Under the pieces are notes generated by a model. It was not told where the DNA came from. It made no database searches and saw only the letters and a list, made by a program, of their open reading frames with translations. This document shows positions 50,450 through 53,084 of a DNA stretch of 58,621 nt, in pieces (the stretch's first letter is position 1; every line of letters starts with the position of its first letter). A program made the position numbers and the translations under genes. Location of the stretch: the NCBI GenBank assembly GCA_017408685.1, contig JAFQUE010000003.1:1-58621 (forward strand). Reading direction: 5' to 3'. This DNA is from Bacteroidaceae bacterium (GTDB lineage: Bacteria > Bacteroidota > Bacteroidia > Bacteroidales > Bacteroidaceae).

Positions 50450-50457
50450 TACCTTTG
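50450..50457 (+). promoter_or_regulatory. -7 box of the island operon
   Basis: TACCTTTG, 20 bp before the DUF4417 ATG. The -33 element is weak. Confidence 0.6.
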
Positions 50458-50477
50458 TAATAAAAAGGTTATAGACT

Positions 50478-51116
50478 ATGGAAACAAACGTTAATCATAA
50501 AACGTACAAGATGAAATTATTTGAAGACCTAATAATAGAAAGTGCCTTTGGAATGCCTCTACAGCCAATTTACAAAGGCGAGATACCCTGTGAATTATTA
50601 TCATTCAACAAAGCCGTTGCACAAAAGAGGTATGACACAACTGTACATTTTTATATCAATGACAAGGAGTTCACAAGAATACTTACGTATCCCGAAAAAT
50701 ATCTTGAGATACTAAAACGTTTCAAATCAGTTATAGCACCGGATTTCTCTCAATACATAGAAATGCCCTACCCGATGAGACTTTATCATTGTTATCTTAA
50801 CAAGGCTTTTGCTGCTTATTGGAGCAAAAATGGCATAAATGTTATTCCCAACATAACATGGAGTACCCCTGATAGTTATGATTACAGTTTTGCAGGTATT
50901 GAAAAGAACGGTATAATTGCCATAAACTGTACAGGAGTAAAAAAATCGGCGTATTCAAAGTTTCTGTGGTTAGAAGGATACAAAGAGGCCATCAAACGTT
51001 TAGAGCCAAGACACATTATAAGATACGGCGAAAAAATGCCAGGTGAGTTTGAAAAGATAAGCACATATTTTGAGAATGAAAACTATAAATTGTTAAATAA
51101 TGGGAGGAAACGGTAG
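50478..51116 (+). CDS. DUF4417 domain protein
   Basis: 212 residues. The pattern fits DUF4417 proteins found in phages and mobile elements: VHFYINDKEFTRILTYPEKYLEILKRFKSVIAPDFSQY (about 52-90), AAYWSKNGINVIPNITWSTPDSYDYSFAGI (about 114-143), AINCTGVKKS and LEPRHIIRYGEKMPGEF. No enzyme motif is obvious. The function is unknown; some relatives lie beside toxin-like genes. It is AT-rich, unlike the host genes nearby, and overlaps the next gene by 17 bases. Confidence 0.75.
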   Translation: METNVNHKTYKMKLFEDLIIESAFGMPLQPIYKGEIPCELLSFNKAVAQKRYDTTVHFYINDKEFTRILTYPEKYLEILKRFKSVIAPDFSQYIEMPYPMRLYHCYLNKAFAAYWSKNGINVIPNITWSTPDSYDYSFAGIEKNGIIAINCTGVKKSAYSKFLWLEGYKEAIKRLEPRHIIRYGEKMPGEFEKISTYFENENYKLLNNGRKR

Positions 51117-51477
51117 TTTTTTTAGTGGAATAACTAACTTTGAAGATGGTAGGACATACAAGACTATATTAAGCATTGGAGATAATATAAAGATACTTGA
51201 AACCAAAAATCCACATAATAGTCTTAAACTCCCAGAGGAGAGCCACACTCCGAATAGGACATATGCAACGTTTTATCGTAATGGAAAAGGATTGAAAGAA
51301 ATCGCAGAATATGGTCCCGACGGAAAGAGGATTAATTCAATACATCTTCAAGATCACAAGGGGTTAGGGCCACATTGGCATCCTTGGAAGGATGGCGGTC
51401 AAGTAGAAAACGCCGCTTATGATTTAACAGACAGGATGAAAAGTATTATAAACAAAATCATAAACGTCAAGAAATGA
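51100..51477 (+). CDS. Small toxin-like protein with H-rich C-terminal motif
   Basis: 125 residues. It begins with a flexible MGGNGSFFSG segment like those before toxin domains in phage-linked polymorphic toxins. The second half has GPDGKRINSIHLQDHKGLGPHWHPWKDGG (about 73-101), a D/H-x-x-x-x-x-HxH arrangement recalling small nuclease toxin domains. Its ATG lies within the DUF4417 gene, and its stop TGA overlaps the ATG of the following immunity-like gene (ATGA, 51474-51477), the layout typical of toxin-immunity pairs. Toxicity is inferred, not shown. Confidence 0.6.
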   Translation: MGGNGSFFSGITNFEDGRTYKTILSIGDNIKILETKNPHNSLKLPEESHTPNRTYATFYRNGKGLKEIAEYGPDGKRINSIHLQDHKGLGPHWHPWKDGGQVENAAYDLTDRMKSIINKIINVKK

Positions 51478-52166
51478 ACAGACCATATATAATCAACAAC
51501 ATTGACGGCAACCCGATGAACGCCAAATATCCACCAAATAAGGAACTGTACGGCGATGAGTTCGGTGGATACAAAAACAGAACAGAAGAAGTTCTGTTCT
51601 ACGAATTTATAGTGTTGGAAAAAGATGTCTCTTTTATATACAATGGAACGAGATATTACTTTTACAAGCACAACACCCCCGCAACAGCATACAATGCAAC
51701 CAAGAAAGAGATTATTGCTGAATACCCGAATGAAATAGAACTGATTGAAAGTTTCTCAATTGATGGCATACCGTTTTTGGAGTTGAGGGATGAAATATGT
51801 GACCTAAGCACGTATAGGAATGTGTTCAAACCACACTTTGATTTAGACAAGGACGGATACCCTTACAACTGTAAGTATCCGCCAAATAAAGAGAAATACG
51901 GTTTTTCGTATAATGGTTACAAAAGCTCTTTCGAGGAAACTCTTTATTATGATTTTGGAGTCCAGAACTATGACCTATACTTTAAGTATAAAGGCAAAGA
52001 GTATCATGTGCTTAATGAGTTTAATCATGTAGCCTTATGCGATGAACATTATACCAAAGAATACGAAGTTTTCGCTGATGAAATGGATTTCATTGAGAAT
52101 TTCAATATTGACGGTGTACCTTTAATTAATTTAATTGAAGAACTTGAAGAAGCAGACCCTATGTAG
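51474..52166 (+). CDS. Immunity-like protein, copy 1 (two internal repeats)
   Basis: 230 residues, acidic and rich in Tyr and Glu. It consists of two related units of about 100 residues (about 6-105 and 122-222), each with DGxPxNxKYPPNKExYG, a GYKxxxEExLxYxFxV stretch, a YxGxxYxxxxxxxxA segment and an ExIExFxIDGxPxxxL end. No signal peptide. It is coupled to the toxin-like gene by an ATGA overlap. Its function as an immunity protein is inferred from position, acidity and tandem duplication. Copy 2 follows exactly 740 bp later. Confidence 0.7.
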   Translation: MNRPYIINNIDGNPMNAKYPPNKELYGDEFGGYKNRTEEVLFYEFIVLEKDVSFIYNGTRYYFYKHNTPATAYNATKKEIIAEYPNEIELIESFSIDGIPFLELRDEICDLSTYRNVFKPHFDLDKDGYPYNCKYPPNKEKYGFSYNGYKSSFEETLYYDFGVQNYDLYFKYKGKEYHVLNEFNHVALCDEHYTKEYEVFADEMDFIENFNIDGVPLINLIEELEEADPM

Positions 52167-52213
52167 TTTCATAAAGACTACGCTTTACAACAATCAATCA
52201 TAAACTTCAAGAA

Positions 52214-52906
52214 ATGAACCGACCTTATATAATCAACGACGCTGAAGGCAACCCGATAAACGCCAAATATCCACCGGACAAGGAACTATACGGCGATGAG
52301 TTCAATGGATATAAAAACAGAACAGAAGAAGTTCTGTTTTACGAATTTATGGTGTTGGAAAAAGAAGTCTCTTTTACATACAATGGGGTAAAATATTATT
52401 TCTACAAGCACAACACCTTGGCAACAGCATACAATGCAACCAAGAAAGAGATTATCGCTCAATACCCGAATGAAATAGAACTGATTGAAAGTTTCTCAAT
52501 TGATGGCATACCGTTTTTGAAGTTGAGGGATGAAATATGTGACCTAAGCACGTATAGGAATGTGTTCAAACCACACTTTGATTTAGACAAGGACGGATAC
52601 CCTTACAACTGTAAGTATCCGCCAAATAAAAAGAAATACGGAGATTCTTATGAAGGATACAAAAACTGGGCCGAGGAGGTTTTATTTTACCGTTTTGGAG
52701 TTTTATGCTATGATGCAAGTTTTACTTACAAGGGTAAAGAGTTTTTTCTGTTGAAAGAATACAATCATGCGGCAACATGTGACAAGAATTTTACTGAAGA
52801 ATACGAAGTTTATGCAGATGAAATGGAGTTGATTGAAAATTTTAAAATTGACGGCAAGCCATTGATTGAACTAATTGACAAGATTCAAAATATTGATTCG
52901 GAGTAG
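52214..52906 (+). CDS. Immunity-like protein, copy 2
   Basis: 230 residues, the same length as copy 1. The first 145 residues are nearly identical to copy 1 (differences include INDAEGNPI for INNIDGNPM), while residues 146-230 are much more diverged (ENFKIDGKPLIELIDKIQ against ENFNIDGVPLINLIEELE). This mosaic suggests gene conversion of the first unit, or selection for a different second unit. The upstream spacer (52167-52213) contains no toxin gene, so copy 2 is an additional immunity-like gene, perhaps against a variant partner. Confidence 0.7.
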   Translation: MNRPYIINDAEGNPINAKYPPDKELYGDEFNGYKNRTEEVLFYEFMVLEKEVSFTYNGVKYYFYKHNTLATAYNATKKEIIAQYPNEIELIESFSIDGIPFLKLRDEICDLSTYRNVFKPHFDLDKDGYPYNCKYPPNKKKYGDSYEGYKNWAEEVLFYRFGVLCYDASFTYKGKEFFLLKEYNHAATCDKNFTEEYEVYADEMELIENFKIDGKPLIELIDKIQNIDSE

Positions 52907-52953
52907 TTGCATAAAGACTACGCTTTACAACAATCAATCATAAACTTCAAGAA

Positions 52954-53022
52954 ATGAACCGACCTTATATAATCAACGACTCTGAAGGCAACCCGATAAA
53001 TGCCAAATATCCACCGGATAAG
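52954..53022 (+). pseudogene. Truncated third copy of the immunity-like gene
   Basis: The first 23 codons match copy 2 (start MNRPYIIND, then EGNPINAKYPPDK), then homology stops abruptly after GATAAG at about 53022. The frame runs on through unrelated sequence to a stop at 53131-53133, overlapping the end of the outer-membrane gene on the other strand. This marks a deletion or recombination end-point of the island. Confidence 0.8.
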
Positions 53023-53084
53023 GGTACAAAACAGGGGAGAAATTCAGGTGATTTCGCTCGTTTGCACAAGCATTCAGTTTACAA

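What the first reader, a model, noticed from the sequence alone, without database searches (positions are those of the whole stretch)
50450..53022. AT-rich island: DUF4417, toxin-like protein and tandem immunity-like genes
A promoter leads into three tightly overlapping genes: DUF4417, a 125-residue protein with a GGNGSFFSG start and a DHKG...PHWHPW motif, and an acidic immunity-like protein. The second and third overlap by ATGA, as toxin and immunity genes often do. A second immunity-like copy and a broken third follow. The composition is clearly more AT-rich than the neighbouring genes. DUF4417 is known from phages. The grouping as a compact defence or competition cassette is inference, but the combination is not one I recognise.
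Basis: partly seen in the sequence, partly recalled or inferred. Interest (0 to 1): 0.75.

Follow-up and report, generated by a model that had tools for sequence, protein, structure and literature searches.

The report
Phage-derived toxin and tandem immunity genes
A bacterium carries a small cassette, apparently taken from phages, that probably encodes a cell-poisoning protein and repeated copies of the protein that protects against it; in phages the same kind of cassette puts many different toxin-like domains behind one short shared tag.

Summary
In detail: an AT-rich island holds DUF4417, a 125-residue protein, an overlapping acidic 230-residue protein, a second full acidic copy and a truncated third. 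Toxin plus immunity is the best reading. The small protein is a divergent relative of the toxin domain Ntox24: 8 of 47 family members match that Pfam model, all below its cut-off, and Y, H, H residues are conserved. The acidic protein is a doubled phrog_3711-like domain, and two Firmicutes Ntox24-type toxins are followed by genes of that same family. Congeneric genomes show toxin-immunity-toxin-immunity, a decayed DUF4417 and orphan immunity genes; the window's extra immunity copies are preceded by in-frame remnants of a toxin tail. In phages DUF4417 accompanies genes that share an MGGRGA leader but fall into 33 further sequence clusters, a few with toxin domains. I found no description of that link in the library searched. 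Against: 59 of 70 homologues lack an adjacent acidic gene, the one Ntox24 toxin above cut-off does not align, and toxicity and fold are untested.

The parts
50450..50457 (+). TACCTTTG, possible Bacteroidota-type -7 box (consensus recalled)
   Evidence: present in the sequence, but not above chance
50478..51116 (+). DUF4417 protein, 212 aa, full length
   Evidence: PF14386 E 7.2e-49, profile 15-176 of 183; carries the 19 columns invariant in 13 aligned DUF4417 proteins
51100..51477 (+). Ntox24-like toxin candidate, 125 aa, with MGGNGS leader; overlaps DUF4417 by 17 nt
   Evidence: phrog_9479 E 1e-9; family link to Ntox24; Y55, H86, H92, H94 present
51474..52166 (+). immunity candidate copy 1, 230 aa, two repeated domains (about 51474-51824 and 51825-52163)
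   Evidence: ATGA overlap; internal repeat; phrog_3711 E 1.2e-6
52167..52213 (+). spacer with in-frame toxin-tail remnant ending in the ATGA of the next gene
   Evidence: translation ..HKDYALQQSIINFKK* beside true tail ..MKSIINKIINVKK*
52214..52906 (+). immunity candidate copy 2, 230 aa
   Evidence: 177 of 230 residues identical to copy 1, omega 0.27; phrog_3711 E 9.6e-12
52907..52953 (+). second spacer with the same toxin-tail remnant
52954..53031 (+). truncated third immunity copy (first 26 residues)
   Evidence: 69% identity over query residues 1-26

Best explanation
The island is a phage-derived toxin-immunity cassette that has settled in a bacterial chromosome. Gene 2 makes a small Ntox24-like toxin behind a short MGGxG leader; by the published prediction for Ntox24 it would be a metal-independent RNase. 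Gene 3 makes an acidic immunity protein of two repeated domains that binds and blocks it. The immunity copies downstream are what remains of further toxin-immunity modules whose toxins were lost, kept because immunity alone protects against cells or phages that carry the toxin. DUF4417 is the phage partner of leader-tagged proteins, probably used in phage late gene expression or virion loading, and dispensable in the chromosome. Shown here: homology, gene order, module remnants, signs of purifying selection, the DUF4417-leader link. Inferred: toxicity, RNase activity, direct inhibition, the role of DUF4417, and the benefit to the cell.
For: Toxin: Pfam Ntox24 is matched by 8 of 47 family members, best 8.3e-5 at 23.2 bits, cut-off 24; comparison of the 47-member profile with three Ntox24-type C-termini gives 93.4%, E 2.5e-7, an unrelated control 0.2%; Y55 in 47 of 47, H92 in 47, H94 in 44, the published signature being Y, H, H (PMC3482391, passages). 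Immunity: two Firmicutes Ntox24-type ORFs are followed by genes matching phrog_3711 at 1e-12 and 4e-13, the family matched by the window's acidic proteins; direct comparison 79.1%, E 1.6e-5. Modules: G698 has toxin-immunity-toxin-immunity with 4-nt overlaps, G710 toxin-immunity behind a decayed DUF4417, G711 an orphan immunity gene with 220 of 230 residues identical to copy 1. Toxin-tail remnants precede immunity copies 2 and 3. Omega 0.10-0.18 between the three intact congeneric toxins, 0.27 between the window's two immunity copies.
Against: The window's own toxin has no Pfam match at E up to 1 and no family member reaches the Ntox24 cut-off; the three bridging toxins are themselves just below it, and the one searched toxin above it, L163, does not align beyond PHxH (0.7%). 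Only 11 of 70 family members have an acidic neighbour within 20 nt, whereas 89.4% of MuF toxin genes are reported to be followed by a small ORF (PMC5576092, passage). The known partners Imm50 and Imm53 were not detected. No PADLOC model and no solved structure matches. Synonymous divergence between the congeneric toxins is near 1, so the omega values are rough. No toxicity data.
Confidence: 0.76

Rival explanations
1. An intracellular toxin-antitoxin module: the pair acts inside its own cell as an addiction or anti-phage (abortive infection) system, with no delivery to other cells.
For: Stand-alone 125-aa toxin without an export domain and with an overlapping partner; Zhang et al. report Ntox24 in apparent type II toxin-antitoxin systems (PMC3482391, passage).
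Against: Orphan immunity genes without toxin in G711 and G293 and immunity multiplication are more typical of protection against foreign toxin; phage relatives often lack a partner; no PADLOC match.
Confidence: 0.35
2. A decaying phage remnant with no present function; the intact frames are recent.
For: Truncated third copy, toxin-tail remnants, DUF4417 decay in G710 and absence of an intact DUF4417 in G698; found in few genomes (3 of 295 for the toxin; 4 of 24 congeners).
Against: Omega 0.10-0.18 between intact toxins and 0.22-0.27 between close immunity copies; Y, H, H residues and DUF4417 invariant columns retained.
Confidence: 0.12
3. The leader family are phage structural or packaging accessory proteins, not toxins, and the acidic protein is a chaperone or regulator of them.
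For: Location beside packaging genes in several phages; 59 of 70 family members have no acidic neighbour; most of the other leader proteins have no Pfam match.
Against: Ntox24-like signal, other leader proteins with ADP-ribosyltransferase, papain-fold toxin and CdiA_C matches; recurrence of the phrog_3711-type partner behind Ntox24-type tails of larger Firmicutes ORFs.
Confidence: 0.12

Closest known systems
Ntox24 (Pfam PF15529) polymorphic-toxin domain
   Same: Conserved tyrosine and two histidines, PHxH-type motif; near-threshold Pfam matches in 8 of 47 family members; Firmicutes Ntox24-type ORFs are followed by a phrog_3711-type gene like the window's toxin
   Different: Stand-alone 125-aa protein with an MGGxG leader rather than the C-terminus of a large exported toxin; below the curated cut-off
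MuF polymorphic toxins of temperate phages (PMC5576092), including Bxa of Bacteroides with two immunity proteins (PMC11699363)
   Same: Phage-borne, exchangeable toxin domains, small immunity ORFs, sometimes two, occurrence in Bacteroidales
   Different: No MuF domain; the shared part is a leader of about nine residues, and DUF4417 is a separate neighbouring gene
ParB-DUF4417 proteins of phages (PMC12704722)
   Same: Same DUF4417 domain; L015 is such a long form annotated as DUF4417 protein
   Different: The window's protein has no ParB part; the passages I read do not mention leader-tagged neighbours
Phage-encoded ESX-secreted toxin cassettes of Mycobacterium prophages (PMC10654092)
   Same: Compact phage-borne toxin-immunity cassettes with exchangeable toxin domains
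   Different: They carry WXG100 secretion parts; none seen here
Orphan toxin-immunity modules of CDI and Rhs loci (recalled)
   Same: Tandem modules with immunity genes left behind and traces of toxin 3' ends
   Different: No large parent exoprotein gene among the ORFs read between 48.5 and 56 kb

Membership tests
Ntox24 (PF15529) | score above Pfam's curated cut-off (24 bits) | tested here: not met
   best family member 23.2 bits; window protein no match
Ntox24 (PF15529) | conserved Y, H, H (PMC3482391 table; the same paper's text speaks of a single conserved histidine) | tested here: met
   Y55 47/47, H92 47/47, H94 44/47; equating them with the paper's residues is inference
Ntox24 (PF15529) | all-beta fold | not testable with these tools
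   structure prediction switched off
Ntox24 (PF15529) | published immunity partners Imm50 or Imm53 | tested here: not met
   no Pfam immunity family in the window's acidic proteins or nine partners of relatives; published toxin-antitoxin versions have another, uncharacterized antitoxin family
DUF4417 (PF14386) | Pfam match above cut-off | tested here: met
   166.2 bits against 28.9
MuF polymorphic toxins | N-terminal MuF domain | tested here: not met
   no Pfam match in the 125-aa protein
phrog_3711 (function unassigned; proposed immunity family) | profile match | tested here: met
   copy 2 E 9.6e-12, copy 1 E 1.2e-6
Type II toxin-antitoxin system | toxicity neutralised by the partner protein | not testable with these tools
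   needs an experiment
PADLOC defence systems | profile match | tested here: not met
   five proteins (three of the window, two relatives), none at E up to 0.1

The most novel reading that the evidence does not exclude
DUF4417 and the MGGRGA leader together define an undescribed phage polymorphic-toxin system. A leader of about nine residues replaces the usual large trafficking domain, DUF4417 (alone or fused to ParB) recognises it and loads the tagged proteins into the virion or processes them, and the effector domain behind the leader is exchanged freely among Ntox24-like, ADP-ribosyltransferase, papain-fold, CdiA-C-like and many unknown domains. The window shows such a cassette captured by a chromosome, where immunity genes multiply as protection against phages or neighbours armed with it.
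Probability: 0.35. Interest if true: 0.82.

Novelty: new variant of a known kind. Interest (0 to 1): 0.63.

Why it matters
It offers a testable role for DUF4417, a domain seen in 473 phage records without an assigned function, and suggests that a very short tag may be enough to place diverse toxins in one phage pathway. It also shows how bacteria capture such a cassette: the DUF4417 partner decays, toxins are lost, immunity genes multiply. Acidic genes of this family in other genomes could then be read as protection against a specific phage-borne toxin.

Tried and rejected
Structure prediction of the small protein (switched off); no fold search was therefore run. Solved structures: no credible match for the small protein or its family (only chance-level matches at E 0.1 or worse) and none at all for DUF4417 or the acidic domain. 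Plasmids: no match for toxin or immunity. Phage records: one weak match to the window's toxin, none to the acidic protein. NCBIfam: no credible match. Pfam matches of the small family other than Ntox24 (25 of 33 families were shown; for example FlgD_ig in 7 of 47, best 0.0011, and APH-like_N in 6 of 47, best 0.0015) are nearly as numerous as Ntox24 (8 of 47) but at least ten times weaker at best; I judged them chance or compositional. L163, a Bacteroidota Ntox24 match above the cut-off, did not align with the family beyond PHxH (0.7%), and L164 alone gave only 29.6% (E 5.7e-4). An empty-site comparison was not decisive: in congeners the two flanks lie on different contigs. The idea that the leader is only a ribosome-binding-site or overlap effect was rejected: its glycine and arginine codons vary synonymously among 73 sequences.

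Full report
Observation. DUF4417 overlaps the 125-aa gene by 17 nt, the 125-aa gene overlaps the first acidic gene by ATGA, and a full second and a truncated third acidic copy follow at 740-nt spacing. GC is 0.350-0.365 in the three 1-kb windows concerned against 0.407-0.528 in the other 55. The flanking genes, on the other strand, are an ECF sigma factor and an outer-membrane beta-barrel protein. I read ORFs only between 48.5 and 56 kb of the window and noticed no phage structural gene there, but did not scan the rest. The claimed promoter is not above chance. The acidic protein is itself two repeats of about 115 residues, so the locus holds four full copies of that domain and the start of a fifth.

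The small protein. By single searches it is nearly orphan: no Pfam or NCBIfam match, phrog_9479 at 1e-9, one weak phage record, and 3 of 295 genomes sampled from the order, its own included. Stepping through a fecal contig (L004) and Streptococcus phage A25 (L016) gave a large family: 55 loci in viral contigs and 7 in genome contigs. In alignment A8 (47 sequences, window included) the leader residues G2, G3 and G5 are present in 46 of 47, Y55 in 47, H86 in 46, H92 in 47, H94 in 44. Eight of the 47 match Pfam Ntox24, best 8.3e-5, 23.2 bits, cut-off 24; the other Pfam families shown were weaker. Zhang et al. 2012 (PMC3482391; I read passages) list Ntox24 as all-beta with conserved Y, H, H, found also in toxin-antitoxin systems; the text elsewhere speaks of a single conserved histidine and suggests a metal-independent RNase. 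I searched genomes for Ntox24 itself: 0 of 7, 2 of 395 in the window's phylum, 2 of 249 in the phylum of G687. The C-termini of three of these four ORFs (alignment A13) match the A8 profile at 93.4% and E 2.5e-7; an unrelated control gives 0.2%. The fourth, L163, the only one above the curated cut-off, does not match, and the three that do are themselves just below it. I therefore call the window's protein Ntox24-like and do not file it as a member.

The acidic protein. It matches phrog_3711 (copy 2 at 9.6e-12, copy 1 at 1.2e-6), a family without assigned function. In two Firmicutes genomes (L291, L292; host group inferred from G687's record) the ORF with the Ntox24-type tail is followed immediately by a 79-aa gene that matches the same phrog_3711 at 1e-12 and 4e-13. 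Direct profile comparison with the window family gives 79.1%, E 1.6e-5. So both halves of the pair recur together, in one case behind a 360-aa ORF of different architecture. Acidic partners of more distant relatives (L009, L010, L012) are probably the same fold (71.7%, E 3.5e-5; control 0.2%). None of nine partners matches a Pfam immunity family.

The genus shows how the array arose. Of 24 congeneric draft genomes, 4 match the cassette DNA. G698 has toxin-immunity-toxin-immunity, each pair with a 4-nt overlap, beside genes that look like a phosphate-transport operon; its first toxin copy has a frame break after the leader, and traces of a DUF4417 3' end precede the toxins. G710 has toxin and immunity behind a DUF4417 gene with most of its middle missing. 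G711 has an immunity gene with 220 of 230 residues identical to copy 1, no toxin, and a truncated second copy after it. G695 has only remnants. G293, in the same order, has a single-domain orphan. In the window, immunity copies 2 and 3 are each preceded by an in-frame tail ..DYALQQSIINFKK* ending in the same ATGA overlap, while congeneric toxins end in ..NKIINFKK or ..NKIVNFKK. The simplest reading is that copies 2 and 3 were once parts of toxin-immunity modules. Omega is 0.10-0.18 for the three comparisons of intact toxins, 0.27 between the window's immunity copies and 0.22 against the orphan; synonymous divergence of the toxins is near 1, so these are rough. Both components seem to have been under selection, and DUF4417 was not needed to keep the pair.

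The phage origin is wider than the pair. The window's DUF4417 finds 473 phage records, 369 of them of Mycobacterium phages. Of the eight such records I opened, four have an annotated terminase within the stretch (L014, L015, L016, L019); in L013 and L020 the gene lies at the genome's left end, L017 is unannotated (a portal-like ORF by eye), and in L018 it lies in a tRNA cluster. Of 62 loci fetched by the small protein alone, 56 also hold DUF4417. Of 72 distinct DUF4417 genes fetched by DUF4417 alone (80 loci kept of 228 found; 8 duplicates dropped), 29 have the small family nearby and 67 have some ORF with a loose leader pattern within 2.5 kb; at least one of the 67 (L109) is a chance match, and the pattern also hits methylases and terminases. 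I then searched viral contigs by the leader alone, at DNA level (104 stretches, 80 loci returned). Of 84 matches I dropped 19 duplicates and 11 proteins under 60 aa; of the remaining 54 distinct proteins 46 lie with DUF4417 on the same strand in the same locus, 34 of them of the small family and 12 others, and 8 do not (many loci are partial). The leader is a protein-level signature: GGT, GGC and GGA all occur often at each glycine and five arginine codons are used, 73 sequences. Behind the leader the 64 other ORFs fall into 34 BLAST clusters, one being the L109 chance match. Of 37 proteins scanned, two match ADP-ribosyltransferase toxins, two papain-fold glutamine deamidase toxins, one CdiA_C, one DUF6883 and one NDUS4; no other family matched at 0.01.

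Mechanism. I think it most likely that the 125-aa protein is an RNase-type toxin blocked by the acidic protein, and that in phages the leader-tagged toxins belong to the packaging-stage gene set and may be carried in the virion. For the latter, published context exists only by analogy: head-packaged ADP-ribosyltransferases encoded near terminase and portal genes (PMC9503650, passages), a VIP2-MuF fusion predicted to be a virion component (PMC7302621, passages), MuF toxins (PMC5576092, passages) and Bxa in Bacteroides with two immunity proteins (PMC11699363, abstract and section 7). The leader could be a loading or processing tag and DUF4417 its reader; that is inference.

Against. Only 11 of 70 family members have an ORF of 70-250 aa with net charge -4 or lower starting within 20 nt of the toxin end (one of the 70, L144, is a weak match). 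For MuF toxins 89.4% are reported to be followed by a small ORF (PMC5576092, passage). A toxin made only at the end of a lytic cycle would not need immunity, but it is equally possible that the phage proteins are not toxic to their hosts. Toxicity, fold and any virion association are untested.

Literature. DUF4417 appears in 3 papers of the library; one reports ParB-DUF4417 fusions in phages (PMC12704722, passages), another lists a DUF4417 gene in a Streptococcus phage table (PMC8066415, one passage), the third I did not open. Ntox24 appears in 1. Polyvalent phage proteins (PMC5512222, passages) do not mention DUF4417 in the text searched. Searches for the leader letters gave 11 papers and 27 papers, 20 listed, none on phage toxins by title. 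Most subscription journals are not in this library, so prior description cannot be excluded.

Noticed in passing
L016 3525-3935 (Streptococcus phage A25): The annotated gene starts 27 nt later than an in-frame ATG and so lacks the MGGRGASSG leader; such annotation may hide the leader in other records.
   Followed up: partly
L187 and L186, beyond the sigma-factor gene (G711, G695): At the sigma-factor side, where the window has the cassette, two congeners have a different gene pair resembling a HigB/HigA toxin-antitoxin module (names recalled), then an enolase-like gene.
   Followed up: partly
L004 and L302: Two different hosts have the toxin-immunity pair next to genes that look like phosphate-transport (pst) genes; in L004 it is also preceded by an XRE-like regulator and an ImmA/IrrE-like protease (names from memory).
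   Followed up: no
L009 3148-3756: A 202-aa gene resembling an ADP-ribosyltransferase by eye (no Pfam match) lies directly before the toxin-immunity pair and DUF4417 in what looks like a prophage.
   Followed up: partly
leader ORFs of L091, L100, L124, L128, L142: Several leader proteins have LQFF or LQLF just before GGRG, as if a longer conserved N-terminus or cleavage site existed.
   Followed up: no
L182 364-475 and L185 1-118 (G695): Immunity remnants lie beside two paralogues of the same outer-membrane gene, near contig ends, suggesting a repeat-rich hot spot.
   Followed up: partly
L293 and L294: Two loci with several toxin-like and immunity-like ORFs in series, one of them Ntox24-type.
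   Followed up: partly
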